Part shown: positions 383-62,715 of the stretch, in pieces
Layout of the letters: every line of letters begins with the position of its first letter
Numbering within the stretch: position 1 is the stretch's first letter
DNA from: Pseudarthrobacter chlorophenolicus A6
GTDB lineage: Bacteria; Actinomycetota; Actinomycetes; Actinomycetales; Micrococcaceae
Assembly: GCF_000022025.1 (NCBI RefSeq)
Contig: NC_011879.1
Location: forward strand, 310,001 to 374,000
Reading direction: 5' to 3'
Length of the DNA stretch: 64,000 bases
Program-made: the position numbers and the translations under genes
The notes under the pieces: model-generated
What the model saw: only the letters and a program-made list of their open reading frames with translations
The model's database searches: none
What the model was told of the DNA's origin: nothing

Positions 383-413
383 ATGTGTACGGCGGGGCTG
401 GTACGACTCCCCG
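383..413 (-). promoter_or_regulatory. Class A element promoter
   Basis: On the minus strand the -35-like CGGGGAG (413-407) and -10-like ACACAT (388-383) are separated by 18 nt, and ATG 375 follows after 7 nt. Confidence 0.7.
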
Positions 414-415
414 TG

Positions 416-901
416 TCAGGCCGACGCGAGCTGCTCGATCTCGTGTTTGAGTGCCTTGCGGGTGACGTCCAGTTCCGTGGCGTCGAAAAGACCGCCGTTG
501 CCGACCGTACCCAGCGACTTGCGGTATTCGGCTTCGACCATCTCCAGGGCCGCCGGCAGGTGCTTCTCGTATCGGTCCATCCCCCGGTCGCGGAATTCGT
601 ACATGTCCGGGTAGAGCCTTGCCTTTTCGACCTCCCTCAGTCCGGCCTGGTCTACGGCGCGCCAGGCCGTGATGCACAGCTGGGTGCGATCGAAGCTGCC
701 GCGGCCCATCAAACCGTCCGAAGCCTCTTCCTTCCACCGGTTGGAGGCCATTGTGTGGAAAGCGATCTGCTGGACGGCGGCCTCGAAGGTGTCATCTGGC
801 AGCCCTATCAGGTGGACGTGGTCGGGTTCGGCATGAGCGGTTGCGGCGAATTGTCCGCCGGAGGGGACACCGGGCTGAATGCGGGGCTGGGACGAGGTCA
901 T
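416..901 (-). CDS. GGQFA-tagged protein of unknown function
   Basis: A 161-residue protein whose first ~25 residues carry the tag PGVPSGGQFAATAHAEP, shared with the proteins at 47317, 48365 and 52856. The rest is a soluble, mostly helical sequence that I do not recognise. ATG 901 is preferred over ATG 907 because the first residues then match the tag context and the degenerate ACACAG box lies 6 nt upstream. It is monocistronic and independent of the gene at 923-1129. A role in conjugation or plasmid biology is only inferred from the company the tag keeps. Confidence 0.8.
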   Translation of the reverse strand: MTSSQPRIQPGVPSGGQFAATAHAEPDHVHLIGLPDDTFEAAVQQIAFHTMASNRWKEEASDGLMGRGSFDRTQLCITAWRAVDQAGLREVEKARLYPDMYEFRDRGMDRYEKHLPAALEMVEAEYRKSLGTVGNGGLFDATELDVTRKALKHEIEQLASA

Positions 902-907
902 ACTCAT

Positions 908-938
908 CTGTGTGCGGGCCTTTCAGGAGTTGATGAGC
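908..938 (-). promoter_or_regulatory. Degenerate class A promoter
   Basis: CCCGCACACAG on the minus strand lies 6 nt before ATG 901. The -10 core ends in G rather than T and no good CGGTGAG copy sits at the expected -35 position. Confidence 0.45.
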
Positions 939-1129
939 TGGTCACGGAGGGCAACGGCCCTTGCGGTGGGGCGGAACGGCGCCTCAGCGGCCCGGGAAGC
1001 CCTGCCGAGGCGGCCGGGGATGTGGCCCATGCACTTCTCGCAGCACGCCCGCCTCATGCGCTCACGGTGCTGGCGTCGGAGGGCCTTCTTGCGGGCGCCG
1101 ACGGCAGTGGAGCGGAGATTTCGCTTCAC
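923..1129 (-). CDS. Small basic Cys-containing protein
   Basis: A 68-residue, Arg-rich protein starting at GTG 1129, which overlaps the TGA of the preceding gene (GTGA) and has AAGGAGG just upstream. The core ACCEKC followed by MGHIPGRLGRA could be a half zinc site or a nucleic-acid-binding patch. Not recognised. It is translationally coupled to 1126-1437. Confidence 0.55.
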   Translation of the reverse strand: MKRNLRSTAVGARKKALRRQHRERMRRACCEKCMGHIPGRLGRASRAAEAPFRPTARAVALRDQLINS

Positions 1130-1437: not shown

Positions 1438-1478
1438 GGGGGCTTCCTCCTGCTCGGGCCGGCGGGCGGCCGGCTGCT

Positions 1479-1862
1479 TCACTGCATGTGTGCGGCAGGA
1501 GCCAGCGCAGTGCCCGCCTCCAACTGCCGGACGTAGTGGTCCAGGAACACGGGAGGGAACGCTGCAGCGTCGGCAGTGACTGACCATTGCAGCCAGAAGG
1601 CGGCGGCCATTCGCGCCCAGCCCTCGGTCATTGGTTCGGGCCGGATCAGTTCACGCGGGTACCCCTGGCGGACGGAACGATCGCCCAGATACCGGCTGAT
1701 CTTGATCCGGTCGATCCGGGCCGTCCCCGGGGGTGTCGCCCAGAGGTGCTTGCCGTCGGTTTCGAAGGCGTGCCCGTTGAGTGTGAAGTGCACCGGTTCG
1801 GGCAGCGCCGGCCGGGTGCGGTGGTAGCCGCGGCGCCGCTCCTGCGCAATCGGACTACCCAT
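1479..1862 (-). CDS. Unknown 127-aa protein
   Basis: Starts at ATG 1862, overlapping the TAG stop of the small membrane protein gene upstream (ATGGGTAG). It has a basic N-terminus (QERRRGYHRTRP) and aromatic-rich segments such as AAAFWLQWSV near residues 85-100. No recognised domain or membrane helix. It is the distal gene of the operon beginning at 3578. Confidence 0.6.
   Translation of the reverse strand: MGSPIAQERRRGYHRTRPALPEPVHFTLNGHAFETDGKHLWATPPGTARIDRIKISRYLGDRSVRQGYPRELIRPEPMTEGWARMAAAFWLQWSVTADAAAFPPVFLDHYVRQLEAGTALAPAAHMQ
1486..1516 (-). promoter_or_regulatory. Class A element promoter, inside the 3' end of the upstream gene
   Basis: -35 CGGGCAC (1516-1510), 18-nt spacer and ACACAT (1491-1486) on the minus strand, within the last codons of the 1479-1862 gene. 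It would transcribe 1437-923 separately. Confidence 0.7.
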
Positions 1863-2635: not shown

Positions 2636-3222
2636 CGTGCTCCGATCAATTCGTGGTCTACTGCTACACGTGCGTCGATGAACTGGCCGAGCTCATCGAA
2701 GGAGACAGGACGCTGCCAGGCGTCGAACCCGACGTTGATTTGACGGCCATTCACCTTCCAGGCTTTGTGGACGTGCCCGTGTAGCAGCCACAGGCCCTCG
2801 TCCCGGAGGCGCCACTGGTTGTAGCGGTCCTCCCGGTCGATGCCGTCCCCGGAATACGGGAAGTGGGAGAGCACGACGTTGCGGTCCCCGATGCGCCGGC
2901 TGGCAGCCATCTGCACGGAGGCGAAGACGTCGAGATATTTGCGGAAGTGCCGGTGGGCGTCCGAATAGAGCGGGTGGACCGGATCGTGGTTGCCGGCGAC
3001 CAGGTGCTTGGTGCCCGGCAGCTTCCTGAGCAGCTCCAGGGCCGGCTTGGGGTTGGAAGATGCCAGGTCACCGAGGATCCAGACGGAGTCCTTTTTGGTG
3101 ACGTTCTCCACCCACTGCTGGGCGAAAAAGTCGTCATGGTCCGCGGTGGATTGGAACCCGCGGTCCGCAGCAACAACGGCGTGTCCCACGTGAGGGTCAC
3201 TCGTGGCCAGGACGGTTGTCAT
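2632..3222 (-). CDS. Calcineurin-like metallophosphoesterase
   Basis: 196 residues with the metal-binding motifs of the calcineurin-like phosphoesterase fold in order: SDPHVGH at the N-terminus (D-x-H), LGDLA near residue 51, GNHDP near residue 77 and the terminal HGHVH near residue 149. A binuclear metal centre hydrolysing phosphodiesters or phosphomonoesters is expected. The substrate cannot be told; small members of this type act on nucleotides or nucleic-acid ends. It overlaps its neighbours by 4 bp on both sides, within the operon starting at 3578. Confidence 0.85.
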   Translation of the reverse strand: MTTVLATSDPHVGHAVVAADRGFQSTADHDDFFAQQWVENVTKKDSVWILGDLASSNPKPALELLRKLPGTKHLVAGNHDPVHPLYSDAHRHFRKYLDVFASVQMAASRRIGDRNVVLSHFPYSGDGIDREDRYNQWRLRDEGLWLLHGHVHKAWKVNGRQINVGFDAWQRPVSFDELGQFIDARVAVDHELIGAR

Positions 3223-3578: not shown

Positions 3579-3585
3579 GGGCCTT

Positions 3586-3616
3586 ATGTGTGCGGCGCAT
3601 CATCCTGCTCTGCCCG
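3586..3616 (-). promoter_or_regulatory. Class A element promoter
   Basis: -35 CGGGCAG (3616-3610), 18 nt, ACACAT (3591-3586), then 7 nt to ATG 3578. This is one of the best matches in the window, with CGGCGGGCAG identical to the -35 region at 5613. Confidence 0.8.
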
Positions 3617-5582: not shown

Positions 5583-5613
5583 ATGTGTGCGGCAGCCGGC
5601 GGGTCACTGCCCG
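5583..5613 (-). promoter_or_regulatory. Class A element promoter
   Basis: -35 CGGGCAG (5613-5607), 18 nt, ACACAT (5588-5583), then 7 nt to ATG 5575. Confidence 0.8.
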
Positions 5614-6458: not shown

Positions 6459-6489
6459 ATGTGTGCGGAGGTGACGCGCCAGCTCACCG
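6459..6489 (-). promoter_or_regulatory. Class A element promoter
   Basis: -35 CGGTGAG (6489-6483), 18 nt, ACACAT (6464-6459), 7 nt to ATG 6451. Confidence 0.8.
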
Positions 6490-11111: not shown

Positions 11112-11142
11112 ATGTGTGCGGACAGGAGCAGAAGCCTGCCCG
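11112..11142 (-). promoter_or_regulatory. Class A element promoter of PBP operon
   Basis: -35 CGGGCAG (11142-11136), 18 nt, ACACAT (11117-11112). The -35 forms part of one arm of an inverted repeat. Confidence 0.75.
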
Positions 11143-14777: not shown

Positions 14778-14808
14778 ATGTGTACGGATGGCCACAGCTG
14801 CGTCATCA
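14778..14808 (-). promoter_or_regulatory. Class A element promoter
   Basis: -35 TGATGAC (14808-14802), 18 nt, ACACAT (14783-14778), 7 nt to ATG 14770. The same -35 variant occurs at 32829. Confidence 0.75.
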
Positions 14809-15848: not shown

Positions 15849-15879
15849 ATGTGTGCGGAGTGGAAGCTGGTGCTCTCCG
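15849..15879 (-). promoter_or_regulatory. Class A element promoter
   Basis: -35 CGGAGAG (15879-15873), 18 nt, ACACAT (15854-15849). The predicted start is at 15841, giving a ~28-nt leader with AAGGA before ATG 15812. Confidence 0.75.
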
Positions 15880-16377: not shown

Positions 16378-16408
16378 ATGTGTACGGCGTCGCCGGGGTC
16401 TTACTCCG
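16378..16408 (-). promoter_or_regulatory. Class A element promoter
   Basis: -35 CGGAGTA (16408-16402), 18 nt, ACACAT (16383-16378), 7 nt to ATG 16370. Confidence 0.75.
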
Positions 16409-25587: not shown

Positions 25588-27435
25588 ATGAACCAGACCA
25601 CCCCGCTGCTCCACGACAAGCTCGCCTGGGACGGTAAGAAGCTCGTCGTTACCGACGACGCCGTGATCAACAAGATCCGGCGCAAGGCGCTTTCCCCGTC
25701 CACCTCCAAGTCGATGCAGTCATGCGCCGCGCGCTGGGTGGGGGAGCGGCTGTTGCGCAGCGAGGACGAGGACCCGTTCGCTCCCGCACCGCTGGGGACC
25801 AGCGCCCACTCCGTCATGGAGGACATGTACGACGAGGACGTCTACGAACGCCACGAGCGCAGCCTGGCCCTGGCCGAGGCGCTGACCGTCAGGGACGCGG
25901 ACATCATGTGGCCGGACATCGAGAGCGAACCGGACAGTGTGCGGGCGATGGTCCGGCTCAACCGCCGGCGCTGGATCGAAGAGGTCAAAATCGCTTACGA
26001 AGGCATCTTCGTCATCGAGGACCCGAAGACCATCGAGGTCCACTCCCGCGAAATGCAGATCGACGGGCTGACCATCAACGGCGTGCCGACCAACGGCTTC
26101 ATCGACCGGGTCCGGTACGGGGTCAACAAACGCGGCAAAGAGGGCCTCATTCCGGAGGACTACAAAACCGGGAAGGTAGGCAACACCCGGTTCGGTGACG
26201 ACCACGGGGACCAGCTGCGCATCTACGCGGCAGCCCTGAAAGAGAAGACCGGGGAAACGCCGGTAGCCGCCACGGTGCTCTACACGAAGTTCGGCAAGGC
26301 CCGGGACGTGGACCTGAGCCCGGCCGCCATGTCCAAGACGCTGAAGACCTACGAGCTGTCCTGGAAGCGGCACAACCGGTACATGGAGACCCACGAGTTC
26401 CCGACCAAGGTCTCGGCCCTGTGCGGCTGGTGCCCGCTGATCAACGCCTGCCCCGTAGCCAAGGAGGAAGGCAAGAAGGTCTCCGAGAAGGTCGCCGACC
26501 AGATGTTCTCCTCCACTGACCTCGGCATCCCTGCCCTGCGTCCCGGTGCCTCAGTCGCCGCCATGGCCTCCACCGAGGACACCATCGTCGAACACCACGG
26601 CCAGGACATCACCTTCTTCATGCCGGATCCGTTCAGCTACGGAATCCCCGATGAGCAGCTCGAAGCCGTGGAGAGGGCATCAGAGCTTGCCGCACACATG
26701 TATGCCAGCGGGGAGAACCCGATCACATCTCTGGACAAGGACCATGGAATGGCAAAAATCACGGAAGACAAGGTCTGGGTGCCGTACACCGTCGAAGGTG
26801 AACTGAACCCGAACTCCTACGCTGCGATGGGTGTCTTCGGCACCGCGGAACTCGCTGTCGAAGCACTCCACCGGGCCGGACTGGCCATCAACGGCTCGAA
26901 CGTCAAGGCGCTGGCCGCCACGTTCCAGCACATCGTCGCCGAGGCACAGGAAAGCTGGACTGGTTCCACGTCTGCCTCCGACGGTGCCAACTCCCGGATG
27001 CGCGGTGCCCTCCGCACTGTTCTGGCCACGTTGCCGATGCCGTTCGGCGAGGACGAAGCCGCCTGGGATGGATGGGTCGTTGCGGCCGTCCGCCGCTGCA
27101 AGTCCATCACCGCCGTCGCGCTGGCGCTGTTCGCCGACGAGCGTCCCGAAACCCCGTGGACCGCCCTGGCCGGTGTCGCCGCGGAAGCTGCTCCCGCCGC
27201 GTCTGCCCCGGCACCGAAGGAGGCAGCCAAGGCTGCCCTCAAGGCACCTGTGAAGGCAGAACCGGCTGCTGATGAAGCCGCTGCCGACACCGCGGAAGCC
27301 GCCGTCGAAGCTCCCGCACCGGCATCCGAGCCCAAGCGCGTCATCCGCAAGGCCGCGTCCAAGCCCGCACCCGCGGACGACCTCGACTTCGTGCCGGACG
27401 ACTTCGCCGCCGACGCAGACGTCTTCGTCGGCTAA
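25588..27435 (+). CDS. RecB/Cas4-type PD-(D/E)XK nuclease with Fe-S cysteines
   Basis: 615 residues. The N-terminal ~300 form a RecB-family nuclease: LSPSTSKSMQSCAARW at the start, GTSAHSVMEDMY, then GFIDRVRYG and IPEDYKTGKVG carrying the D and E-x-K residues, followed by DQLRIYAAAL. One Cys near residue 47 plus C-GWC-PLINAC at ~280 would hold a 4Fe-4S cluster as in AddB/Cas4. The C-terminal ~200 residues have an unknown domain and an Ala/Pro/Lys tail. It likely processes DNA ends in element replication or recombination, with the protein at 27475. Confidence 0.8.
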   Translation: MNQTTPLLHDKLAWDGKKLVVTDDAVINKIRRKALSPSTSKSMQSCAARWVGERLLRSEDEDPFAPAPLGTSAHSVMEDMYDEDVYERHERSLALAEALTVRDADIMWPDIESEPDSVRAMVRLNRRRWIEEVKIAYEGIFVIEDPKTIEVHSREMQIDGLTINGVPTNGFIDRVRYGVNKRGKEGLIPEDYKTGKVGNTRFGDDHGDQLRIYAAALKEKTGETPVAATVLYTKFGKARDVDLSPAAMSKTLKTYELSWKRHNRYMETHEFPTKVSALCGWCPLINACPVAKEEGKKVSEKVADQMFSSTDLGIPALRPGASVAAMASTEDTIVEHHGQDITFFMPDPFSYGIPDEQLEAVERASELAAHMYASGENPITSLDKDHGMAKITEDKVWVPYTVEGELNPNSYAAMGVFGTAELAVEALHRAGLAINGSNVKALAATFQHIVAEAQESWTGSTSASDGANSRMRGALRTVLATLPMPFGEDEAAWDGWVVAAVRRCKSITAVALALFADERPETPWTALAGVAAEAAPAASAPAPKEAAKAALKAPVKAEPAADEAAADTAEAAVEAPAPASEPKRVIRKAASKPAPADDLDFVPDDFAADADVFVG

Positions 27436-32828: not shown

Positions 32829-32859
32829 TGATGACGTTTGTCAGATCAGCCGCACACAT
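32829..32859 (+). promoter_or_regulatory. Class A element promoter
   Basis: -35 TGATGAC (32829-32835), 18 nt, ACACAT (32854-32859), 7 nt to GTG 32867. Confidence 0.8.
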
Positions 32860-34598: not shown

Positions 34599-36848
34599 AT
34601 GATGCAGAAGACCCTCACCGAAACCGTTCGCCTCAGCACTGGAATCCCGACCGCCGATGCCCGGCCCGGCCAGGTCGCCCTCCTGGACGACATTGAAGCC
34701 GCAATCCGCGCCACCGGACACGTCTGTGGTGTGGCACCGACTGGCGTTGGGAAGAGCTTTTCGCTGCTCGCTCCGGCTATGGTGGCCGCCGCCAAGTACG
34801 ACCAGCGGACCATCATCAGCACCGAATCCCTGGCCCTGCTGAGCCAGATCCTGCTCAAGGATGCACCCGTCGCCGCCGCGGCCTGCGAGAAGGTCACCGG
34901 CACCCGGCCCAAGGTCGCCGTCCTGAAAGGCTTCTCCAACTACGTCTGCAGCCAGTCCGCCCGTGACGCTGCCGAACAGCTCACCGACACCGTCGGCCAG
35001 CGCCCGTCCCTGCCCTCGCTCCGGTCCAAGCTCAAGCGACTGGCCAACCAGAAGAACGTATTCCTGGACGGCCGCCCGTTTGACGCTGCAAATGGCGTGC
35101 CCCTGCTGCTGTGGGCTCTGTCCCTCGCCGCGGACCAGGCCGGAGACAAACAGTCCTACGAGGGCGTCACCACCCCTGAACTGTGGGACGCCGTTTCTGT
35201 CGGCCCCTCCGAATGCATCGGCGACACCTGCCCCATCTTTGACCTGTGCAAGCCACGCGCCGCACGGGCGAAGGCCGCAGAGGCCGACATCGTGGTGACC
35301 AACCACTCCATGCTGGCTGTCCAGGCCGCCAAGGGCGTCCCGGTCATCATCGGCAACAAGACCCTCGGCGAATTCCACATCATCATGATCGATGAGGCCC
35401 ACGCCCTGCCGGCCAACGTTCGCTCCGCAGGCGCCAGCGAAGTCTCGGCCGCGGCTGTCATGTCCCTGACCAAGTCCGTGTCCCGGACCCTGGACGAATC
35501 GGACCCTGCCGTCGGCCGGCTCATCAAGGAGGGCAACGCCCTGGCCATCGAGCTGGAGGACGAGCTCGCCGAGATGGCCAAGTACACGAAACCCGGCGAA
35601 GTGTGCAAAATCAAGGAGACAGCTGACCCGGTTGAGACCACAGGGGACATGATGATCGGTTGGGCCCGCAGCGTCAAAAACGCCCTCGACGGGGTGTCCA
35701 AGTCAAAGAACATCCAATCGAAACTCAAGGCCAAGAGGCTGGCCGGCCGTCTCGATGCCTTCATCGGGGCTGTCGGCCAGGTCAAGCTGCACCGGATCGG
35801 CACCGCCCGCTGGATCGAGCAGAAGACGCCGCCGGCCAACGCCAAGGTCCAGACGCCCTACTGGTGTGCCAACGCCTCCCCGGTGAACATCTCCGGGCTG
35901 CTGCAGGCCAATCTGTGGACCGCCCCGGTGATGGTGGACGAGGAAGACGAAATGGTTCAGGCCATGAAGGAAGCCGGCGAGCCGATCGAGGAGGAGACCG
36001 AGACCTACCCGATGACGGTCATCGCCGTCTCCGCGACCCTGCCGTCCCGGTTCGGCTACCAGGTCGGCCTGACCGCCGAGAATGTCGCCTATCCGTCCCC
36101 GTTCGACAAGGCCTACGATGACTCGCTGCTGTACATCCCAAAGCTGACCCCTGAGGAGATCCCGGAAATGTTCCCGGGCTGGCGGCCGGGCACCAAGGGA
36201 AAGTTCAACGGGGCCCTGCACCAGGCCTGGGCGACGAAGAAGAACGTCGAGCTTGTGGAGGCCAACATGGGATCGGCCCTGATCCTGTCCGCGAACTCTA
36301 CCGCCGGCAAGGCGTATGCGGCGGCGCTGCGCCGCGCCGCGAAGGGCCGCTGGAACGTCTACTCCCAGTGGGACGGACTTTCCACCCAGCAGCTCACCAA
36401 CCTGTGGCGGGACGACGTGAAATCCGTGCTGGTCGGCACCAAGTCGTTCATGACCGGCGTGGATGCCAAGGGACGCACCTGCTCACTGGTAACCATCGAC
36501 CGGATCCCGCGCGCAGCCGGCAACCCGGTGGACGACGCCCGCGTCGAAGCGATCATGGACGCCCTGCAGATCGGCAAATGGGCCGCGGATACCTACGTGT
36601 ACGTCTCCGACGCCGCACTGCTCCTCGAGCAGGCCCTCGGCCGGCTGATCCGGTCCGTGTCCGACTTCGGGATGGCAGCCATCCTGGATCCGCGGATGCT
36701 CAAGACCGGTCCGGTGTCCTACCCGGAACCGACCCGGAAGGTCTACAAGGACGCCGCGGGAAGGTTCAGCAAGGTCACCACGAGCCAGTCCGCCGCTGAG
36801 GAATACCTTCACAAGATCAGCGCCCAGGCCTTCGCCCTCGCATCCTGA
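34599..36848 (+). CDS. DinG/XPD-like Fe-S superfamily 2 helicase
   Basis: 749 residues. Walker A GVAPTGVGKSFSLL at ~43; Cys residues around YVCSQSA, SECIGDTC and FDLC could hold the XPD-type 4Fe-4S cluster; DEAH box MIDEAHALP at ~263; C-terminal motif VI LEQALGRLIRS. This is the layout of DinG-family 5'-3' DNA helicases. An accessory role in replication or R-loop/fork clearing is plausible; DinG-type helicases also occur in defence and plasmid loci. Confidence 0.8.
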   Translation: MMQKTLTETVRLSTGIPTADARPGQVALLDDIEAAIRATGHVCGVAPTGVGKSFSLLAPAMVAAAKYDQRTIISTESLALLSQILLKDAPVAAAACEKVTGTRPKVAVLKGFSNYVCSQSARDAAEQLTDTVGQRPSLPSLRSKLKRLANQKNVFLDGRPFDAANGVPLLLWALSLAADQAGDKQSYEGVTTPELWDAVSVGPSECIGDTCPIFDLCKPRAARAKAAEADIVVTNHSMLAVQAAKGVPVIIGNKTLGEFHIIMIDEAHALPANVRSAGASEVSAAAVMSLTKSVSRTLDESDPAVGRLIKEGNALAIELEDELAEMAKYTKPGEVCKIKETADPVETTGDMMIGWARSVKNALDGVSKSKNIQSKLKAKRLAGRLDAFIGAVGQVKLHRIGTARWIEQKTPPANAKVQTPYWCANASPVNISGLLQANLWTAPVMVDEEDEMVQAMKEAGEPIEEETETYPMTVIAVSATLPSRFGYQVGLTAENVAYPSPFDKAYDDSLLYIPKLTPEEIPEMFPGWRPGTKGKFNGALHQAWATKKNVELVEANMGSALILSANSTAGKAYAAALRRAAKGRWNVYSQWDGLSTQQLTNLWRDDVKSVLVGTKSFMTGVDAKGRTCSLVTIDRIPRAAGNPVDDARVEAIMDALQIGKWAADTYVYVSDAALLLEQALGRLIRSVSDFGMAAILDPRMLKTGPVSYPEPTRKVYKDAAGRFSKVTTSQSAAEEYLHKISAQAFALAS

Positions 36849-36873
36849 CACTTTTCAGATTTGCCGTACACAG
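36843..36873 (+). promoter_or_regulatory. Class A-like promoter
   Basis: TCCTGAC (36843-36849), 18 nt, ACACAG (36868-36873) within GCCGTACACAG. The gene start is ~57 nt further, after its own ribosome site. Confidence 0.5.
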
Positions 36874-40170: not shown

Positions 40171-40194
40171 GAAGTGGGAGCCTTACACGGCGTG

Positions 40195-40225
40195 CGGTAA
40201 CAGTGTCAGGGCAGTCCGCACACAT
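40195..40225 (+). promoter_or_regulatory. Class A element promoter
   Basis: -35 CGGTAAC (40195-40201), 18 nt, ACACAT (40220-40225), 7 nt to GTG 40233. Confidence 0.75.
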
Positions 40226-40232
40226 GGGGGAG

Positions 40233-42327: not shown

Positions 42328-42358
42328 CGGGCACCTGCAAGGGGTGTTCCGCACACAT
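42328..42358 (+). promoter_or_regulatory. Class A element promoter
   Basis: -35 CGGGCAC (42328-42334), 18 nt, ACACAT (42353-42358). A ~35-nt leader with AGGAG precedes ATG 42401. Confidence 0.75.
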
Positions 42359-42762: not shown

Positions 42763-45051
42763 ATGGCCCTAACAGCTGTCCTCACCGGGACCTACCGCAA
42801 CCCTGAACTCCGCTTCAAATTCGGCTGGGGTGCAACCCTGCCCAACGGCAAGTCTGCCCAGGACTGGGTCAAGAAGCTGCCAGGCCGACGGTGGGACAAC
42901 TCAGAGAAGACCTGGTACATCACGGGCACCGGAACGCACCCGGACCGTTTCTTCGAGGCAGCAAAAATCGAGGTGGACTACTCCGAGACCACGGGAGACC
43001 TGGCCGGTCTGGATTCGTTGGAGTCCCTTTGGCGTCCGCTGGTTCAGCGATCCGAACGTTATCCGCACATGGTATTCGTCCGACCCCGGCTGGCCGGCTT
43101 TGAGCGAATGAGCGCCATCCTTGGCCCTGGAGCCATCTGGGACAAGGCTCGCCAGAGGTTCAATGTCATGCTCTCGGACCTCGTCACCGATGAAGGCGAA
43201 GCCAAGAAGGGGCTGAGGCTCGACCCACTCACCTATGAGGCCGCCGTCCAGTCACGGCAGCTTGAAAGTATCCCTGAGCCCGTCCGCGCGGCCGCCAGGG
43301 AACTGGCCAGCTCCACGGGAGTCCTCGGCGATGAGCAGAAGGAACTCTCGCCCCGTGCCAAGGAACTCATCGACGTTGTCGCCTCCCACACCGGATACCT
43401 GCCCAAGTGGTTCGGGCTCGCCCTGTACCCCTTCCAAGTCGCGGGAGCCTACGCCATTGCCGGCGGACACCGCGCATTGGCAGATGCGCCTGGGTTGGGC
43501 AAAACCCGGCAAGCCCTGGCGGCGGCCGCCATCAAGCGCTCCCGCCGCACTGTCATCGTCGTGCCGCCTCTGGTGGTGGAGAACTGGTGCCGTGAGGCCT
43601 ACGCCGCGCTGGGGCCCGGACTGAAGAAGATCCAGCCGCCCGAGGAGGCAACCCCGAAGCCGGCAACGACGAAACGGAAATCGAAGGGCAAGCCCAAGGC
43701 GCCACCTAAGAAGCCAGACTTCCCCCCGTACATTGTCCCCATCCGGGCCGGAAAGAAGGTGCCCGCGTTCCCGGAGGCCGGGGTTGTCGTTGTCGCAGAC
43801 TCTTTGCTCGGCTCTCGTCCGGAGCTCGTAGACCAGCTGGTGGCCTGGGACCCGAGGGCTGCCTTGTTCGATGAGGTGCACCGGTCCCGGACCTGGGCAG
43901 GCCAGCGCGCCACAGCCAATCGGAACTTGGCCTGCTCCATCGACGCCCTCCGCCTGCCCATGACCGGTACCCCGTTCCTGCAAAACCCCGCCGAAGGCGT
44001 CAACATGCTCGCCATCGCCGGTCTCCTGGACCCGGTGTTCGGTGGCGCCTCCAAGTTCATGGAGACGTACACGACGCAGAACCACTTCGGCGCCTTCCTG
44101 CCCAACCGCAAGATGCTCCCGCAGCTCGAGGAAATCCTCACACACAGCTGCTGGGTCCGGCGAAACAAGAAGGACGTCCTCAAGCAGCTGCCGCCCAAGC
44201 TGCGCACCACCCGCTACGTGGAGATCGACCCCAAAGGCTTCAAGGCCGCCCACGACACCTTGTACGAGAAGGTCACCGAGTGGATCGAGGAGCAGCGCGA
44301 CGCCGGTGAGATCATCTCCAAGGAGACCATCAAGGAGTTCGCCCGTTCCAGGGTGGACCTCATTACCCCGCTGCGCGCCGCGGCCGGCATCGCCAAAATC
44401 CCAGCCGCCATCGAGATCATCTCCGACTGGATGGAAGCCACCACCGAGGTTCGCAACGGCAAGAAGGTCTACACACGACCCTTGACGGTGTGGGTGCACC
44501 ACCAACCAGTCATGCAGGCCCTCATCGAAGCTGTCGAGAAGGCCGGTATCGCCGACGCCGGATTCATCGACGGGGGAGTGGCCCAGCACAAGCGCCAGGC
44601 CGTCGCGGACAAGCTGCAGAACGGTGAGATCGGTGTCATCTTCTGTTCCATCGGGGCCGCAGGCTTCGGCATCACCCTGACCGCCAGCTCCGACACCATC
44701 TTCATCGAGACTGACTGGACCCCGGCGAACATCAGCCAGGCAGAAGATCGGAACAACCGCATCGGCCAGCTGAACACCTGCATGGTCACTACGTTGCTGG
44801 CCACCAATACCCTCGATGCCCACATGCGCGCCATCCTCCGGAACAAAGCCAAGGACCTGGATGTCATGATGCCCGGCGCCGACAACAACGTCACCAGGAT
44901 GACCTCGGTGCTGAACGAGGAGACCAACGCCTACGAGGTCCTCACGGAAGAGGACCTGGAGCTGGAGAAGAACTTCAAGTCCCTGGGCGACATCGTCGAG
45001 AACATCGTCCAGGACATCCTGTTCATCCGCGGCTACGAGCTGGCCGCATGA
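42763..45051 (+). CDS. SNF2-family helicase with HARP-like N-terminus
   Basis: 762 residues. The N-terminal ~85 residues (FKFGWGATLPNGKSAQDWVK ... TWYITG) resemble the HARP annealing domain of SMARCAL1-like proteins. The ATPase core has DAPGLGKTRQALAA (~242, motif I), LFDEVHRSR (~367, DEVH), PMTGTPFLQNP (motif III) and, at the end, QAEDRNNRIGQ (motif VI). A Lys/Pro-rich insert lies at ~295-320. Likely DNA translocase or fork remodeller of the element, or part of a defence module with the methyltransferase and HA proteins. Confidence 0.85.
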   Translation: MALTAVLTGTYRNPELRFKFGWGATLPNGKSAQDWVKKLPGRRWDNSEKTWYITGTGTHPDRFFEAAKIEVDYSETTGDLAGLDSLESLWRPLVQRSERYPHMVFVRPRLAGFERMSAILGPGAIWDKARQRFNVMLSDLVTDEGEAKKGLRLDPLTYEAAVQSRQLESIPEPVRAAARELASSTGVLGDEQKELSPRAKELIDVVASHTGYLPKWFGLALYPFQVAGAYAIAGGHRALADAPGLGKTRQALAAAAIKRSRRTVIVVPPLVVENWCREAYAALGPGLKKIQPPEEATPKPATTKRKSKGKPKAPPKKPDFPPYIVPIRAGKKVPAFPEAGVVVVADSLLGSRPELVDQLVAWDPRAALFDEVHRSRTWAGQRATANRNLACSIDALRLPMTGTPFLQNPAEGVNMLAIAGLLDPVFGGASKFMETYTTQNHFGAFLPNRKMLPQLEEILTHSCWVRRNKKDVLKQLPPKLRTTRYVEIDPKGFKAAHDTLYEKVTEWIEEQRDAGEIISKETIKEFARSRVDLITPLRAAAGIAKIPAAIEIISDWMEATTEVRNGKKVYTRPLTVWVHHQPVMQALIEAVEKAGIADAGFIDGGVAQHKRQAVADKLQNGEIGVIFCSIGAAGFGITLTASSDTIFIETDWTPANISQAEDRNNRIGQLNTCMVTTLLATNTLDAHMRAILRNKAKDLDVMMPGADNNVTRMTSVLNEETNAYEVLTEEDLELEKNFKSLGDIVENIVQDILFIRGYELAA

Positions 45052-45079
45052 TGAGGGGCGCGCGGATTGCCGTACACAT
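45049..45079 (+). promoter_or_regulatory. Class A element promoter
   Basis: -35 TGATGAG (45049-45055, overlapping the SNF2 stop), 18 nt, ACACAT (45074-45079), 7 nt to leader ATG 45087. Confidence 0.75.
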
Positions 45080-46808: not shown

Positions 46809-46839
46809 CGGGGAAAGTCCAGGTTCCGTCCGCACACAT
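46809..46839 (+). promoter_or_regulatory. Class A element promoter
   Basis: -35 CGGGGAA (46809-46815), 18 nt, ACACAT (46834-46839), 7 nt to ATG 46847. Confidence 0.75.
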
Positions 46840-57792: not shown

Positions 57793-57823
57793 ATGTGTGC
57801 GGCGGTACAGGAAAACGTCACCG
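57793..57823 (-). promoter_or_regulatory. Class A element promoter
   Basis: -35 CGGTGAC (57823-57817), 18 nt, ACACAT (57798-57793), upstream of ssb. Confidence 0.75.
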
Positions 57824-58186: not shown

Positions 58187-58217
58187 ATGTGTGCGGATTC
58201 CGGAGCCCCGCTCACCG
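58187..58217 (-). promoter_or_regulatory. Class A element promoter
   Basis: -35 CGGTGAG (58217-58211), 18 nt, ACACAT (58192-58187), ~70-nt leader to GTG 58116. Confidence 0.75.
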
Positions 58218-58219: not shown

Positions 58220-61200
58220 CTAGGCGGCGCGCGTGGACTGTGAGTCTGCGGCCGCGTGCCCGGCCTCGGCCAGCAGGTACCAGGTGTAGTCGGGGTTGGG
58301 ACCGGCGACCTTCTTCCAGCGCGGATCCTCGTCTCCGGCTTCCCGTGCGATCTCCAGCATCTGCAGCCCGCTCAGTGACGGCGAGGTCACCAGGACGGTG
58401 ATCATGTCGCCGCCCACAGCCATGACCCGGTAGATGGATCCGGCCTGGACTGTCTTGGTTGGAAACTGGGCTGTCATGTGGGTCTTCATGACCTGCTCGT
58501 CTCCGGCAATGACGTCGCTGTTCACGCCGTGGCCGAACTCATCGGTTTCGACCGCGCACCAGGAAGCGGTGGCCTTCTTGGCTGGCTGTTTGCCCTGCTC
58601 CGGGTGCAGCTGCACGACGTTGTCGGGGACGCTGTCATCGGCGGCGGCCGGTTCAGCTGACGCGTCCTTGTCCTTGCCGCCCTTTGGTTTGTCCGGGGTG
58701 GGGTTGCTGGCGCGCAGTTCGCGGTACTTCGCAGCGAAGTCGATCACGGCGGGAGGTTCGTTGATTTCGGGGGCGGTTGCCGAGGCGATCGGCCAGACTT
58801 CAAAAATGGAGAGCTCCTTGGTGGTGATGGTGTCCTGGGCCTCGGACTCGTCGTCGCCGACCGAGGTGGTGCGGACGTTGACCTTGCCCGAAACAGCGAC
58901 AACGTCACCGACCTTGGGGACAGCGCCGCGGCGGCGCAGGTTGGACAGGGTGCGATCCCACATGACGCCCTGGATGGTGACCTTGGAGGACTCCAGCGCG
59001 AAGTTGGCCCGGCGCCCGCCGGAGTAGCCCTTCTCTTCCCACATGGAGATGACCCCCACCGTGAGCACAGCTTCGCCGTTCTCGTCGGCGATCCTGTGCA
59101 GCGGGGTGGCCTTGCCGCCGGCCGGGCCCTCCCAGGCGAGGATTTCGTCCTTGAGGGATTGCAAGGGGTGGGTGCCGAGGCTGACGCCAAGGCGCTGGCG
59201 CTGCCGGGTGGATTCCTCCACGTCGGACCATTCGGCATCGATGGGCAGCAGCTCGGTCTTGTGGGCCGCGCGCAGCGTCATGAGCAGCCCGAGCCGCGGC
59301 CCGAACGAGTCCAGCGCACCCGCCTCGATCAGGCCCTGGATGGCGCCCACCGGCAGCTTGGTCGGTTCGGCACCGTTCTTGCCCGGCACTGTGACGCGGG
59401 TGAGGACGTCGTGCAGGTTCTTGAACGGGCCGTTCTTCTGCCGCTCGGCGACAATGTAGTGTCCGGCGACGCCGACCTCTTTGACCTCGGCGAGACCCAT
59501 CTGAACGGACCCGTTCACCGGAGCTGTGCGGGCCAGGGACAGGTTGATGTCCGGGGCGAGCACTGTGATGCCGTCGGTCTTCAGGGACCAGAAGGCGTTC
59601 ATGCGCTTGTCGTCCTTGTCGGCGATGGCCAGGATCGCGGCGGCGTATTCCACCGGCCAGTTGGCCTTCAGGTAGGCGGTGACGAACGCCAGCTGGGCGT
59701 ACGCGGCCGAGTGGGAGGCGTTGAACAGGTAGGACGCCGAGCCCTTCATGAGCTCGAACATGTGGGCGGCCGTTTTCGGGGAGAACTTCGGGGAGATCAT
59801 GGCCCCGTCCTCGTCGAAGAACTCCTGCTCCGCGCCGGCGGCCAGCATTTCGCCGACCTCGGCCATCTTCTTGGCGTCCTTCTTGCCGACGGCCTTACGC
59901 AGCACGGAGCGCTGAGAGGCATCGAAGCCGGAGATGACGGTGCCGAGGCGCATGAGGGATTCCTGGAACACGAACACGCCGTACGTGTCGCCGAGGACCT
60001 TGGCGATCCATTCCTGTTCGGTTTTGTCGGCAGTGAACTGGTTGTAGTCGACCTCTTCGAGCCCGTTTTTACGCGCGGCGTAGCGGTCCGGGACCTTGGC
60101 TGCCAGCGGCCCGGGGCGGAACAGCGCGACGATGGCGGAAATGTCAGTGAGCGATTCGGGGACGACGTCCTGGGCGATTTTGACCATGCCCGCGGATTCC
60201 ATCTGGAACACGCCTCCGGTGTTTCCGGCGGCGATCAGTGCGAACGCGGCATCGACCTTCGGGTCGCCCTGGGTGTCCGGGTGCGGGACGTCATCCATGG
60301 TCAGCTTCTCGCCGGTGGTCATCTCGATGTTTTCCAGCGCGGTGGCGACAATGTCGAGGTTCATCAGGCCCAGGATGTCCATCTTCAGGAAGCCGTAGTC
60401 CTCAACCTCCGGACCGTCCCAGCAGATGACACGGGGCGCGGCGGGGTCGGCGTCGGCTGCGTGGGAAGCCCAGCGCAGCGGAACCAGGTCATCGAGGGGC
60501 TCGGGGGAGACCACGAAGCCGCAGGCGTGGATGGATTCGTTCTTGATGACGCCTTCGAAGGAGCGGGCCATTTCGAGGATGTCCAATGCGTCCTGACCGG
60601 CCTCCTCCACCAGGTCGCGGAACGCCTGTCCGGCCTGGTCTTTCGGGTCGGCGAGCTGATCGAAGTCGTAGGCCTTCTCACCCGAGGCCGGGACAAGGTC
60701 GGACATCTTGTTGCCCAGTCGCATGATCTGGGTTGCCCGCTCGGTCGCGGCCTTCTCGGCCTCGCGCAGCAGGGAGGCACCCTTTCCGCGGTCTCCGGCG
60801 GCGAAGAACTCCTTGGCCTGGGCCTTGATTTCCTCGCTGGGTCCGGACGGCTTCAGGATGCGCGCGGCGTCCTTGATGGCAGCCTTGGACAGTGCCACGC
60901 CGAACGTGCCGATGCGGGCCACGTTGCCCTTGCCCCAGCGGTAGCCGAGGTAGGCGAACACTTCGTCGCGGCGGCCCTTTTCGAAGTCGACGTCAATGTC
61001 AGGCATGCCGGCACGGCCGGGCTCCAGGAAGCGCTCGAACAGCAGGTTGTTGTACAGCGGGTCCAGGCCGACGATGGTCAGGCAGTATGAGACGGCCGAG
61101 CCTGCAGCGGAGCCGCGGCCGGGGCCGACGAGGATAGGCTTCTTCCGCGGCGCGTCCGGGTTGTCGAACTCGATGGGGGCATCGGAGCGGCACCAGTTGA

Positions 61201-62425
61201 TGACATCCCACATGATGAGGAAGTAGTCCGGGAACCCCATGTCCTTGATGATGTCCAGCTCCGTCTTGAGCCGGTCCTTGACCTCCTGGGACAGCGGGGA
61301 GCCATAGCGGGCGATGGCGCCTTCCTTGACCAGCTGCTTCAGGTACACGTTGGAGTCTGTGAAGCCCTCGGGCAGCGGGTACTTGGGCAGACGCTGGTGG
61401 GGCGTCGGGATGACCTGGTCGTCGCAGCGGTCGGCAATGACCTGGGTCATGGCGCAGGCGTCGGCCCAGGACTTGCTGCCTGGCTTGATGTCGAGCATCT
61501 CCGCCTCGGACTTCACGTAGTAGCCGCTGCCGTTGAACTTGAAGCGGGCCGGGTCGTCCAGGCCCTTCTTGCTGCCCACGGCGAGGAAGCCTTCGTGGTG
61601 GTGGGCGTCGCCCTCTTCCTCGTAGTGGCAGTCGTTCGTGACGACCATGGGGATTTCGTACTCGCGCGACAGCTGGCCGATGGGCTTCAGGACCGACTGC
61701 TCGGCTTCGATGCTGTGGTACATGATTTCGAGGTAGACGTTTTCCTTGCCGACGCAGTCGATCAGGGTGTCCAGGTTCTTCCGCGCTTCCGCGGCGAACT
61801 CGGCCGATTTGGCCAGGCTGGCCTGAGCTTCGGCGTCAAGCTTGGAGGCCTCGTCTTCCTCGTTGGCTTCCCGGGCCGCCAGCGCTCCGGCCGCGGCCTG
61901 CTCGCTGGCCGTTTTGGTCGCGGCAGCGCGGGAGAGAGGCCCGGCAACAGGCCCGGCGAGGCAGCCGGAGAGGATGATCAGGCCTTCGCCGTGCTCTTTG
62001 AGCAGCTTGTAGTCGATGCGGGGCTTGTACCAGTAGGACTCTTCGGCCTTGTTGTGCAGGGCCAGGAGGTTCTTCCACCCCTGCTCGTTGCGGGCGAGGA
62101 GCGTCAGGTGCTCGTAGCGCTTTTCCTTGGTGTCGCCCTTGCCGTCGTCGGCGTCGGCGGTGGTGTCGTCGTTGCGGTCCACGATCTCGGAGTTCCGCTC
62201 GAAGCGGTCGCCGATCGACATGTAGATCTCGATGCCGATGATCGGCTTGATCCCCGCGGCCTTGCAGGCTTTCGTGAACCTCCAGGCGCCCGCCAGGGAG
62301 CCGTGGTCAGTGATGGCCATGGCGGTCTGCCCAAGCTCAGCGGCACGTTTGGCCACAGACTTGATCCTCGCCAGGCCATCCAGGCTGCTGTGCTCGGTGT
62401 GGTTGTGGAGGTGGACGAACGCCAT
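58220..62425 (-). CDS. dnaE: DNA polymerase III alpha subunit
   Basis: 1401 residues. PHP domain at the start (HLHNHTEHSSLDGLARI, ITDHGSLAG), polymerase active-site MPDIDVDFEKGRRDEVF at ~475 preceded by GPGRGSAAGS, later IHACGFVVS, NTGGVFQMES, FVFQESLM and FNASHSAAYA, then a C-terminal OB/tau-binding region (VAVSGKVNVRT). All landmarks are intact, so it should be an active replicative polymerase. It is ~200 residues longer than usual, with Ala/Glu-rich inserts inside PHP (~75-100, ~165-215). Start ATG 62425 has AGAGG upstream, and a small gene precedes it. It suggests self-sufficient element replication. Confidence 0.9.
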   Translation of the reverse strand: MAFVHLHNHTEHSSLDGLARIKSVAKRAAELGQTAMAITDHGSLAGAWRFTKACKAAGIKPIIGIEIYMSIGDRFERNSEIVDRNDDTTADADDGKGDTKEKRYEHLTLLARNEQGWKNLLALHNKAEESYWYKPRIDYKLLKEHGEGLIILSGCLAGPVAGPLSRAAATKTASEQAAAGALAAREANEEDEASKLDAEAQASLAKSAEFAAEARKNLDTLIDCVGKENVYLEIMYHSIEAEQSVLKPIGQLSREYEIPMVVTNDCHYEEEGDAHHHEGFLAVGSKKGLDDPARFKFNGSGYYVKSEAEMLDIKPGSKSWADACAMTQVIADRCDDQVIPTPHQRLPKYPLPEGFTDSNVYLKQLVKEGAIARYGSPLSQEVKDRLKTELDIIKDMGFPDYFLIMWDVINWCRSDAPIEFDNPDAPRKKPILVGPGRGSAAGSAVSYCLTIVGLDPLYNNLLFERFLEPGRAGMPDIDVDFEKGRRDEVFAYLGYRWGKGNVARIGTFGVALSKAAIKDAARILKPSGPSEEIKAQAKEFFAAGDRGKGASLLREAEKAATERATQIMRLGNKMSDLVPASGEKAYDFDQLADPKDQAGQAFRDLVEEAGQDALDILEMARSFEGVIKNESIHACGFVVSPEPLDDLVPLRWASHAADADPAAPRVICWDGPEVEDYGFLKMDILGLMNLDIVATALENIEMTTGEKLTMDDVPHPDTQGDPKVDAAFALIAAGNTGGVFQMESAGMVKIAQDVVPESLTDISAIVALFRPGPLAAKVPDRYAARKNGLEEVDYNQFTADKTEQEWIAKVLGDTYGVFVFQESLMRLGTVISGFDASQRSVLRKAVGKKDAKKMAEVGEMLAAGAEQEFFDEDGAMISPKFSPKTAAHMFELMKGSASYLFNASHSAAYAQLAFVTAYLKANWPVEYAAAILAIADKDDKRMNAFWSLKTDGITVLAPDINLSLARTAPVNGSVQMGLAEVKEVGVAGHYIVAERQKNGPFKNLHDVLTRVTVPGKNGAEPTKLPVGAIQGLIEAGALDSFGPRLGLLMTLRAAHKTELLPIDAEWSDVEESTRQRQRLGVSLGTHPLQSLKDEILAWEGPAGGKATPLHRIADENGEAVLTVGVISMWEEKGYSGGRRANFALESSKVTIQGVMWDRTLSNLRRRGAVPKVGDVVAVSGKVNVRTTSVGDDESEAQDTITTKELSIFEVWPIASATAPEINEPPAVIDFAAKYRELRASNPTPDKPKGGKDKDASAEPAAADDSVPDNVVQLHPEQGKQPAKKATASWCAVETDEFGHGVNSDVIAGDEQVMKTHMTAQFPTKTVQAGSIYRVMAVGGDMITVLVTSPSLSGLQMLEIAREAGDEDPRWKKVAGPNPDYTWYLLAEAGHAAADSQSTRAA

Positions 62426-62506
62426 GGGTGCCTCTGAATTCTGTCTCGCTGGAAGTGGGCCGGCGGGCCCGTGGTGATGCAGGACGGGAATGCCGTCCGG
62501 GGTGTC

Positions 62507-62677
62507 CTATGCGGGGAGCTGGCCGACGGCCATCGCCGCGTAGTGTTCCTCGAGCTCGTCCAGGAATTCCGGGGAGAAGAACTTGTAATCCAGCTCCGGG
62601 GGCTCTGGTGAATCGGAGGCAGGCACGACGCCGTATGAGATGCAGGATGCTGATGCTGGGGAGTGTGAGGTCGCCAT
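62507..62677 (-). CDS. Small acidic protein upstream of dnaE
   Basis: 56 residues, start 7 nt after ACACAT. An unstructured N-terminus and an acidic helix (ELDYKFFSPEFLDELEEHY). Probably co-transcribed with dnaE 82 bp downstream. It might be a regulatory or polymerase-binding peptide; unknown. Confidence 0.6.
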   Translation of the reverse strand: MATSHSPASASCISYGVVPASDSPEPPELDYKFFSPEFLDELEEHYAAMAVGQLPA

Positions 62678-62684
62678 GGCCGGT

Positions 62685-62715
62685 ATGTGTACGGCATGGC
62701 TGGGGATGCTCACCG
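62685..62715 (-). promoter_or_regulatory. Class A element promoter of the dnaE operon
   Basis: -35 CGGTGAG (62715-62709), 18 nt, ACACAT (62690-62685), 7 nt to ATG 62677. Confidence 0.8.

What the first reader, a model, noticed from the sequence alone, without database searches (positions are those of the whole stretch)
383..62715. Element-wide promoter regulon: CGGTGAG-N18-ACACAT-N7-ATG
About 20 genes or operons on both strands carry a CCG(C/T)ACACAT box. In most of them a CGGTGAG/CGGGCAG/TGATGAC-type element lies exactly 18 nt upstream. Best examples: 3586, 5583, 6459, 11112, 14778, 32829, 45049, 57793, 58187, 62685. The fixed geometry on both strands cannot be codon bias. It does not look like the housekeeping TTGACA/TATAAT pattern, so a dedicated sigma factor is likely.
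Basis: seen in the sequence. Interest (0 to 1): 0.88.

Follow-up and report, generated by a model that had tools for sequence, protein, structure and literature searches.

The report
Plasmid-wide promoter with its own sigma
A family of giant plasmids in soil bacteria related to Arthrobacter puts well over a hundred of its genes behind one nearly identical promoter that the host chromosome almost lacks, and each plasmid appears to bring its own sigma factor to read it, in one branch fused to a DNA motor of the kind that opens promoters in our own cells.

Summary
The window lies on a 426,858-bp contig (taken to be a plasmid) of a Micrococcaceae genome. CCG(C/T)ACACAT occurs 160 times there, against 1 in 360 kb of its chromosome. 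The upstream element sits at one fixed distance (GG(G/T)GA(G/C)-N14-box: 62 sites, at most 1 at any other spacing of 4-30). Three named 375-440 kb plasmids carry 135-142 boxes each. The sites are intergenic, oriented and conserved at orthologous genes, and predict transcription starts: about half have a start codon 7/8 nt after the box, and in the rest base 8 is usually still a purine. A dedicated sigma is well supported. The contig has one sigma70 gene, 3.2 kb past the window, behind its own copy of the promoter. Relatives' sigmas group with it and share a His/Asn in region 3.0 (E. coli position ~457) that is mostly Val elsewhere. Unexpectedly, in this branch the sigma is fused to an XPB-type SF2 helicase and an HA domain. 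No transcription data exist here, and some box-bearing islands lie in genomes where I found no such sigma. Ten searches of open-access papers found no report of this promoter or fusion.

The parts
383..413 (-). promoter CGGGGAG-N14-CCGTACACAT, ATG at +7, gene 61-375. (The proposed reader, the helicase-sigma-HA gene, lies outside the window at contig C1:377249-380221 (+), with its own promoter copy at C1:377210-377240.)
   Evidence: for the sigma gene
1486..1516 (-). promoter CGGGCAC-N14-CCGCACACAT before gene 1126-1482
3586..3616 (-). promoter CGGGCAG-N14-CCGCACACAT, ATG at +7, gene 3219-3578
5583..5613 (-). promoter CGGGCAG-N14-CCGCACACAT, ATG at +7, gene 4640-5575
6459..6489 (-). promoter CGGTGAG-N14-CCGCACACAT, ATG at +7, frame 5939-6451
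11112..11142 (-). promoter CGGGCAG-N14-CCGCACACAT, 120 nt before called gene 8730-10991 (transglycosylase/transpeptidase, PASTA)
14778..14808 (-). promoter TGATGAC-N14-CCGTACACAT, ATG at +7, gene 13985-14770
15849..15879 (-). promoter CGGAGAG-N14-CCGCACACAT, 36 nt before gene 15144-15812
16378..16408 (-). promoter CGGAGTA-N14-CCGTACACAT, ATG at +7, gene 15885-16370
26669..26699 (+). promoter-like site TGGAGAG-N14-CCGCACACAT inside the same-strand PD-(D/E)XK nuclease gene 25588-27435
32829..32859 (+). promoter TGATGAC-N14-CCGCACACAT, GTG at +7, gene 32867-34030
36843..36873 (+). weak site, box CCGTACACAG, 57 nt before gene 36931-37248
   Evidence: matrix score 10.6; doubtful
40195..40225 (+). 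promoter CGGTAAC-N14-CCGCACACAT, GTG at +7, frame 40233-41234 (inside the called gene 40167-41234 if its earlier start is used)
42328..42358 (+). promoter CGGGCAC-N14-CCGCACACAT before 42401-42685; next gene is the SNF2-type helicase gene 42763-45051
45049..45079 (+). promoter TGATGAG-N14-CCGTACACAT, ATG at +7 of an 8-codon frame, then gene 45113-45763
46809..46839 (+). promoter CGGGGAA-N14-CCGCACACAT, ATG at +7, frame 46847-47236
57793..57823 (-). promoter CGGTGAC-N14-CCGCACACAT, 137 nt before gene 57149-57655 (SSB)
58187..58217 (-). promoter CGGTGAG-N14-CCGCACACAT, 70 nt before gene 57832-58116
62685..62715 (-). promoter CGGTGAG-N14-CCGTACACAT, ATG at +7 of a 56-codon frame (62507-62677), upstream of the polymerase gene 58220-62425
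58220..62425 (-). DNA polymerase III alpha gene, in the 148-gene set shared with W01-W03; likely regulon member

Best explanation
The sites are one promoter class, (C/T)GG(G/T)GA(G/C)-N14-CCG(C/T)ACACAT-N7-(+1 purine), used across a ~427-kb plasmid and its relatives and read by core RNA polymerase (presumably the host's) carrying a plasmid-encoded sigma70-family factor (here contig C1:377249-380221, 3.2 kb past the window). Region 4.2 would read the upstream element, the altered region 3.0 the nearly invariant CCG (an extended -10), and region 2 the (C/T)ACACAT. Transcription would start at the 8th base after the box, so about half the transcripts are leaderless and begin at or next to the start codon. 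The sigma gene sits behind the same promoter, giving positive autoregulation and expressing plasmid genes together while ignoring the chromosome. In this plasmid branch the sigma is tethered to an XPB-type ATPase, which I infer helps open the promoter or helps control the sigma. Shown by sequence: the promoter class, its geometry, its conservation, its plasmid restriction, the presence of the sigma and its promoter. Inferred: that it is transcribed, that this sigma reads it, and any role of the ATPase.
For: Fixed geometry, almost only on the plasmids. Promoter-specific signatures on four plasmids, 575 of 576 boxes paired with a called gene: 278 have a start codon at +7/+8; in the 165 sites with a 20-120 nt leader, base 8 is a purine in 150 and base 7 a pyrimidine in 115, and a Shine-Dalgarno match of 4 or more is found in 113 of 165 against 552 of 1059 genes without a nearby box and 26% of random places. 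Phylogenetic footprint: boxed genes keep the box in orthologues, 83 of 95, 73 of 98, 36 of 52; in the closest pair the -35 columns are 88% identical, the spacer 44%. Sigma link: one PF04542 match on this contig and one on pYJN5-1; all six genomes or plasmids seen with more than 100 sites (G000, G115, W01-W04) have a sigma of this group; its gene has the box 7 or 8 nt before the start in 5 of 6, and in the sixth (W02) the nearest same-strand box is about 2.1 kb upstream, ahead of a closely packed run of genes. The sigmas group together in a quick tree. Position ~457 is H/N in 16 of 16 plasmid sigmas against 0 of 21 RpoD and chromosomal-type fusions, and in 15 of 15 against 0 of 115 other sigma70 hits (ten proteins are in both counts). 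In G035, whose contigs carry boxes, 3 of 4 near-full-length extra RpoD-like sigmas have H/N there too.
Against: No expression data. Of nine genomes with a moderate number of boxes, eight gave only one match, RpoD, in a search with the sigma-HA part at E<=1e-20; five of these eight were looked at and carry stretches with 4-14 boxes. They may be decaying plasmid pieces (box kept in 12 of 24 homologues in six such genomes, too few to decide), may hold a sigma I did not recognise (one search lists 5-24 sigma region-2 genes per genome, one of them, G038:C93, about 4 kb from a box), or may be read by a host factor. Six of 105 scored chromosomal-type fusions also have His at ~457. Three of the named plasmids hold one or two further sigma70-like genes. 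The -35 helix of region 4.2 is almost identical to RpoD, so the -35 change is not explained there. The helicase is not tied to the box: W02 and W03 have no homologue of the helicase part among called genes, and six chromosomal helicase-sigma fusions lie in neighbourhoods with 0-2 boxes. Plasmid-encoded RNA polymerase subunits were not searched for.
Confidence: 0.8

Rival explanations
1. The box is a promoter, but its specificity comes from another plasmid- or host-encoded DNA-binding factor (activator or nucleoid protein) that binds CCGYACACAT and recruits ordinary RpoD polymerase; the plasmid sigma does something else.
For: The box is more invariant and more rigidly spaced than ordinary sigma70 promoters; region 4.2 is RpoD-like; boxes persist in genomes where the sigma search found only RpoD; 148 genes are shared by the four plasmids compared and were not screened for other DNA-binding proteins, so the sigma is not the only conserved candidate.
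Against: The box occupies the -10 position with a purine start at a fixed distance; the sigma is a member of the shared set with the matching function; its extended -10 reader carries a class-specific change seen again in extra sigmas of a box-bearing genome.
Confidence: 0.13
2. An operator or partition-type site for a plasmid protein, placed near gene starts, with no promoter role of its own.
For: Many copies of an almost invariant site on one replicon resemble scattered binding sites for a plasmid protein.
Against: Two boxes in sigma70-like geometry, oriented toward genes with 0 of 166 sites inside opposite-strand genes, start codon at +7/8 in 278 of 575, and mostly a purine at +8 where no start codon exists.
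Confidence: 0.04
3. A translation-level or codon-bias artefact (start-codon context, repeated leader peptide or repeat family).
For: The box abuts the start codon in about half the sites.
Against: Many sites have leaders of 20 nt or more with Shine-Dalgarno enrichment; the spacer and flanks have diverged while the boxes are conserved; nearly absent from the chromosome.
Confidence: 0.01

Closest known systems
SigN (ZpdN) of Bacillus subtilis plasmid pBS32 (PMC6751061; abstract and passages seen)
   Same: Plasmid-encoded sigma70-family factor with a regulon reported as predominantly restricted to its own plasmid, and a self-activated promoter.
   Different: There the sigma is LexA-repressed and DNA-damage induced, with its promoters in one table; here 135-160 exact boxes per plasmid over 375-440 kb, a different promoter, leaderless starts, an RpoD/SigB-like sigma, and in one branch a helicase fusion. 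LexA or damage control was not examined here.
Actinobacterial primary and group 2 sigma factors (RpoD/HrdB/SigA, SigB)
   Same: Among solved structures the fusion's best matches are HrdB/SigA chains, over its sigma part (1.9e-87); regions 2, 3 and 4 present; region 4.2 helix and region 2.3 nearly identical to host RpoD.
   Different: The ten box bases contain no TANNNT; region 2.4/3.0 positions ~447 and ~457 altered; separate group in a quick tree; some copies fused to a helicase and HA domain.
XPB/RAD25 (ERCC3) translocases, including archaeal XPB
   Same: The N-terminal 480 aa match archaeal XPB chains best among solved structures (6p4f 1.3e-32), hit PF16203 above its cut-off, and the ATPase motifs are kept in the protein and in 39 related fusions. 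XPB is described as the ATP-driven translocase that promotes promoter opening in TFIIH (starts of abstracts of PMC13024598 and PMC9557730).
   Different: Here the ATPase is covalently joined to a bacterial sigma; no TFIIH or nuclease partner was looked for, and no activity is known.
Chromosomal-type helicase-sigma fusions of Micrococcaceae
   Same: Same helicase-then-sigma order at about 47-57% identity in the listed hits, with no HA domain listed.
   Different: No box promoter cluster in the six neighbourhoods examined (0-2 boxes) and mostly Val at position ~457 (90 of 105 scored).

Membership tests
sigma70 family, primary-like (not ECF) | Sigma70 regions 2, 3 and 4 present above curated cut-offs | tested here: met
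   PF04542, PF04539, PF04545 all above cut-off; region 1.2 aligns with RpoD though PF00140 was not listed for this protein
sigma70 family, primary-like (not ECF) | Directs RNA polymerase to a promoter | not testable with these tools
   no transcription data
housekeeping RpoD promoter class | -10 element TANNNT ending about 6 nt before the start | tested here: not met
   host chromosome shows TANNNT ending 6 nt before the start in 19 of 289 called genes; the ten bases CCG(C/T)ACACAT contain no TANNNT (seen directly)
plasmid-dedicated sigma (SigN/pBS32-like) | Encoded on the plasmid whose promoters it would read, regulon restricted to it | tested here: met
   in silico only: 160 of 165 exact boxes on the contig that carries the sigma
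plasmid-dedicated sigma (SigN/pBS32-like) | Autoactivation | tested here: inconclusive
   box 7 or 8 nt before the sigma start in 5 of 6 cases; activity not shown
plasmid-dedicated sigma (SigN/pBS32-like) | LexA repression and DNA-damage induction | not tested
   no LexA-site search was made
XPB/RAD25 SF2 translocase | SF2 motifs I, II and VI intact and XPB-type C-terminal domain | tested here: met
   PF16203 above cut-off; GxGKT, DECH and QRLGR visible in the protein and invariant or nearly so in 39 related fusions
XPB/RAD25 SF2 translocase | Damage-recognition, RED and thumb elements of XPB | not tested
   not examined
phage or phage-plasmid | The promoter appears in collections of viral sequence | tested here: not met
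   0 exact matches of the promoter with ATG among viral contigs; but the CHAP-domain protein of the window matches PHROG virion, tape-measure and endolysin families, and capsid or terminase genes were not searched for systematically

The most novel reading that the evidence does not exclude
In the branch that includes this plasmid, the sigma carries its own XPB-type motor that spends ATP to open these unusual -10 elements: a one-polypeptide bacterial counterpart of TFIIH-driven promoter opening, in which a sigma70-class (not sigma54) promoter depends on ATP hydrolysis, running a genome-scale plasmid regulon insulated from the host.
Probability: 0.2. Interest if true: 0.93.

Novelty: new variant of a known kind. 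Interest (0 to 1): 0.8.

Why it matters
If right, these plasmids run a transcription programme that looks orthogonal to the host: one promoter, one sigma, over a hundred sites, conserved across a family of ~400-kb plasmids. That gives a clean natural case of how a large mobile element insulates its expression from the host, a ready test of how region 3.0 reads an extended -10 element, and, in the helicase-fused branch, a test of whether a sigma70-type promoter can be opened by an attached ATPase. The promoter also lets gene starts and operons be annotated on plasmids now listed mostly as hypothetical proteins.

Tried and rejected
Phage reading: viral contigs gave no match to the promoter and the phage collection no match over 80% of the fusion. 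Against this, the CHAP protein of the window matches PHROG virion, tape-measure and endolysin families; I did not search for capsid or terminase genes, so the point is left there. Strict coupling of box and helicase fusion: rejected, because W02 and W03 use a sigma without helicase part, W04 has a 370-aa sigma, and chromosomal-type fusions lack box clusters in six neighbourhoods. Strict coupling of box and sigma genome by genome: not upheld in eight of nine moderate genomes; the box-retention test was inconclusive: 12 of 24 in six genomes without a plasmid-type sigma (one of them, G123, has a chromosomal-type fusion; without it 8 of 19), 13 of 17 in G035. A RpoD-like consensus promoter just upstream of the sigma gene: none found. 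Which hexamer is the -10: unresolved; by the host ruler (TANNNT ending 6 nt before the start) the slot is CACAT(G/A), by a spacing of 17 from GTGAGN it is ACACAT. Structure prediction (P0002 as stand-in, mean pLDDT 66.5, pTM 0.41): better-scored helicase and sigma stretches joined by a low-confidence stretch (463-501); relative placement not determined, so no fold search was run. Gene calls for C1 and W01-W03 come from a simple home-made caller. The lack of Shine-Dalgarno sites in leaderless genes (5 of 278) is partly forced by the box itself and is not used. The 'two-box' column counts some sites twice and is not used. The tree is a quick one with several long branches; two helicase-fusion rows of uncertain origin fall inside the plasmid group.
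Full report
1. Where the window lies. The window is C1:310001-374000 of a three-contig genome: C1 426,858 bp, C2 158,475 bp, C3 4,395,537 bp. Named relatives of C1 are plasmids of Micrococcaceae: pYJN5-1 of Paenarthrobacter sp. YJN-5 (W01), pPA-B-2242 of Pseudarthrobacter sp. BIM B-2242 (W02), and unnamed plasmids of Arthrobacter caoxuetaonis (W03) and Arthrobacter sp. zg-Y1110 (W04), all circular and 375-440 kb. That C1 is itself a plasmid is an inference from these relatives. By reciprocal best hits C1 shares 321, 307 and 200 called genes with W01, W02 and W03, and 148 with all three.

2. The observation. CCG(C/T)ACACAT: 165 in the genome against 3 for the reversed pattern; 160 on C1, 1 in 360 kb of chromosome, 0 in 40 kb of C2; 139, 142 and 135 on W01 (440,000 of 440,465 bases), W02 and W03, and 31 in 50 kb of W04. 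The two-box pattern GGNGA-N15-CCGYACACAT with up to one mismatch gives 125, 130, 119 and 124 on the whole of W01-W04, and 0 for the reversed pattern on each. The upstream element GG(G/T)GA(G/C) lies 14 nt before the box in 62, 52, 56 and 69 cases on C1, W01, W02 and W03; every other spacing from 4 to 30 gives at most 2 on any of them, and the chromosome sample gives none. When sites are picked by the upstream element and a box with up to two mismatches, the box is still nearly invariant. A matrix trained on W01-W03 alone finds 166 sites on C1 at threshold 12, none in the reversed contig and 2 in 360 kb of chromosome; 158 of 166 lie mostly outside called genes, 8 inside same-strand genes and 0 inside opposite-strand genes, on a contig that is 81% called coding. 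Of called operon-head genes 114 of 300 have a site within 150 nt, of internal genes 23 of 177, so the class covers a large part of the plasmid but not all of it.

3. It behaves as a promoter. Of 576 exact boxes on four plasmids 575 could be paired with a called gene. In 278 a start codon lies exactly 7 (256) or 8 (22) nt after the box. In the 165 with a leader of 20-120 nt, base 8 is A/G in 150 and base 7 is C/T in 115; in the 118 with a more distant gene, base 8 is A/G in 112; 14 fit none of these groups. So the start of transcription is predicted at base 8 whether or not a start codon is there. Shine-Dalgarno matches of 4 or more occur in 113 of 165 leadered genes, 552 of 1059 genes without a box nearby and 26% of random positions. 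A check on the host: its called genes show TANNNT ending 6 nt before the start in 19 of 289 cases, the ordinary leaderless arrangement, and no hexamer at a fixed distance exceeds 5 of 289, whereas on the four plasmids the commonest box hexamer reaches 54-59 of 378-468 genes. The plasmids also have some TANNNT starts among genes without a box (28 of 1260 at 6 nt), so host-type promoters are probably used there too.

4. It is conserved. Genes with a box on C1 keep it at the orthologue in 83 of 95 cases on W01, 73 of 98 on W02 and 36 of 52 on W03; of genes without a box on C1 the orthologue has one in 7 of 226, 15 of 209 and 19 of 148. In the W01 pairs the core -35 columns are 88% identical, the spacer 44% and the upstream flank 34%. 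The motif also drifts by branch: W03 and the W04 sample have A after the box in 92% and 87% of sites where the others have mostly G, and T at the fourth box base runs from 0-1% (W04, W03) to 32% (W02).

5. The sigma. C1 has one of the genome's 12 sigma70 region-2 matches, at C1:377249-380221, 3.2 kb right of the window. The protein is 990 aa: ResIII/DEAD and Helicase_C with an ERCC3/RAD25 C-terminal match (aa 32-417), sigma70 regions 2, 3 and 4 (aa 571-794; the best NCBIfam RpoD/SigB models start at about 475-505) and an HA domain (852-913). The helicase part is closest in sequence to archaeal XPB among solved structures (6p4f, 1.3e-32), the sigma part to HrdB/SigA. pYJN5-1 has the same fusion at 74% identity and no second region-2 match. 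W02 has sigma plus HA without the helicase part, W03 a plain sigma, W04 a 370-aa sigma; these three plasmids hold one or two further sigma70-like genes. The sigma gene has the box 7 or 8 nt before its start on C1, W01, W03, W04 and in G115; in W02 the nearest same-strand box is about 2.1 kb upstream, ahead of a closely packed run of genes.

6. Linking sigma and box. Among 295 genomes of the family only G000 (148 sites, control 2) and G115 (135, control 1) have more than 21 two-box sites, and these are the two with a fusion of 75% identity or more. Eight other genomes have fusions at 45-61% identity, one of them broken by a stop, and 0-10 sites. The six genomes or plasmids seen with more than 100 sites (G000, G115, W01-W04) all have a sigma of one group; in a quick tree the 13 plasmid-type fusions form one side of a branch (99) and join the three standalone plasmid sigmas plus two long-branched fusion rows (97) apart from RpoD. 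Aligned on host RpoD, position ~457 (E. coli numbering) is His in 14 and Asn in 2 of 16 plasmid sigmas (the two Asn proteins, G115 and P0005, have identical sigma parts) and neither in 21 others; in the protein hits it is H/N in 15 of 15 plasmid-type, 6 of 105 scored chromosomal-type fusions (110 given) and 0 of 115 other sigma70s. From general knowledge, not from a call, this helix contacts the extended -10 region, which here is the nearly invariant CCG. G035, probably Arthrobacter sp. H14 by a contig length, has boxes on several contigs and four near-full-length extra RpoD-like sigmas (plus two weak broken matches), three of the four with H/N at this position. I noticed this signature after the fact, so it is support rather than a planned test.

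7. Evidence against. In nine genomes with a moderate number of boxes a search with the sigma-HA part found only RpoD in eight. Five of the eight were looked at; the stretches share genes with the plasmids and hold 4-14 boxes, and one of them, G252, keeps a short piece resembling a plasmid sigma. They may be remnants or may use another factor; one search lists 5-24 region-2 genes per genome, including one on a contig with a box (G038:C93, about 4 kb away). Box retention is 12 of 24 homologues in six genomes without a plasmid-type sigma (G123 included) against 38 of 52 to 83 of 95 between plasmids and 13 of 17 in G035: in the expected direction but too few. Region 4.2 is nearly RpoD-like, and the box is stricter than usual for sigma70. 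No expression data were available, and plasmid-encoded polymerase subunits were not searched for.

8. How far it reaches. The exact promoter with ATG at +7 matched 42 stretches in a collection of 84,980 species genomes: 34 in genera I place in Micrococcaceae (13 of them from one Arthrobacter terrae genome), the other 8 scattered over other taxa, about what chance would give. It matched no viral contig. The plasmid-type fusion with HA has ten listed relatives at 72-82% identity; the other 110 listed hits (of 2404 at E<=1e-60; the list stops at 120) are fusions without a listed HA domain at about 47-57%.

9. Literature. Ten searches of open-access papers listed no description of this promoter, of these plasmids' regulation or of a helicase-sigma fusion; subscription papers are mostly not held. 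The closest precedent is SigN of pBS32 (PMC6751061; abstract and passages). PMC11719660 was searched for passages only, and those shown do not concern the plasmid. XPB as the ATP-driven translocase for promoter opening is taken from starts of abstracts in the listing.

10. Verdict. A real promoter regulon, plasmid-wide, with a plasmid-encoded sigma as its most likely reader (0.8). The kind (a plasmid with its own sigma) is known from SigN; the scale, the promoter, the leaderless design, the family-wide conservation and the XPB-sigma fusion make it a new variant. Whether the ATPase opens promoters is open (0.2).

Noticed in passing
C1, 41 proteins; in the window e.g. 47317-48354 (+) and 52856-53566 (+): Forty-one called proteins on C1 (29 on W01, 22 on W02, 18 on W03) match a shared N-terminal tag, typically RQPxGIPxGGQFA(A/P)xxHxEP. 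Its purpose is unknown; it could mark proteins for a common fate such as export or transfer.
   Followed up: partly
L022-L027, L029; P0011-P0120: A helicase-sigma70 fusion without HA domain, often on megabase contigs, occurs in many Arthrobacter and Pseudarthrobacter. Its targets are unknown and the box promoter is nearly absent around the six copies examined.
   Followed up: partly
L213, L214, L215 (G035): Three extra RpoD-like sigmas in one box-bearing draft genome carry the same H/N at position ~457 as the plasmid sigmas.
   Followed up: partly
L141-L143 (G037), L144-L147 (G171), L153-L155 (G038), L156-L158 (G105): Islands or contigs with 5-14 boxes and plasmid-like genes in genomes where the sigma search found only RpoD.
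   Followed up: partly
window 26669-26699 (+): A strong promoter-like site inside a PD-(D/E)XK nuclease gene; pYJN5-1 has a closely similar site (W01:1625-1654), so an internal start may be conserved.
   Followed up: no
window 58220-62425 (-) and 62756 to beyond the window end (-): A DNA polymerase III alpha gene and next to it a second gene whose start looks like a PHP/DnaE protein (not tested); in pYJN5-1 the annotated dnaE is one 5.46-kb gene.
   Followed up: no
P0116 and P0122: A 51% helicase-sigma fusion and a 77% W03-type standalone sigma both list a longest contig of 745,514 bases, so one replicon may hold both forms.
   Followed up: no
window 54301-56196 (-): A CHAP-domain protein whose upstream part matches PHROG virion-structural, tape-measure and endolysin families.
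   Followed up: no
G009:C15:454451-456997: A fusion relative whose sigma part is interrupted by a stop; left as it is.
   Followed up: no
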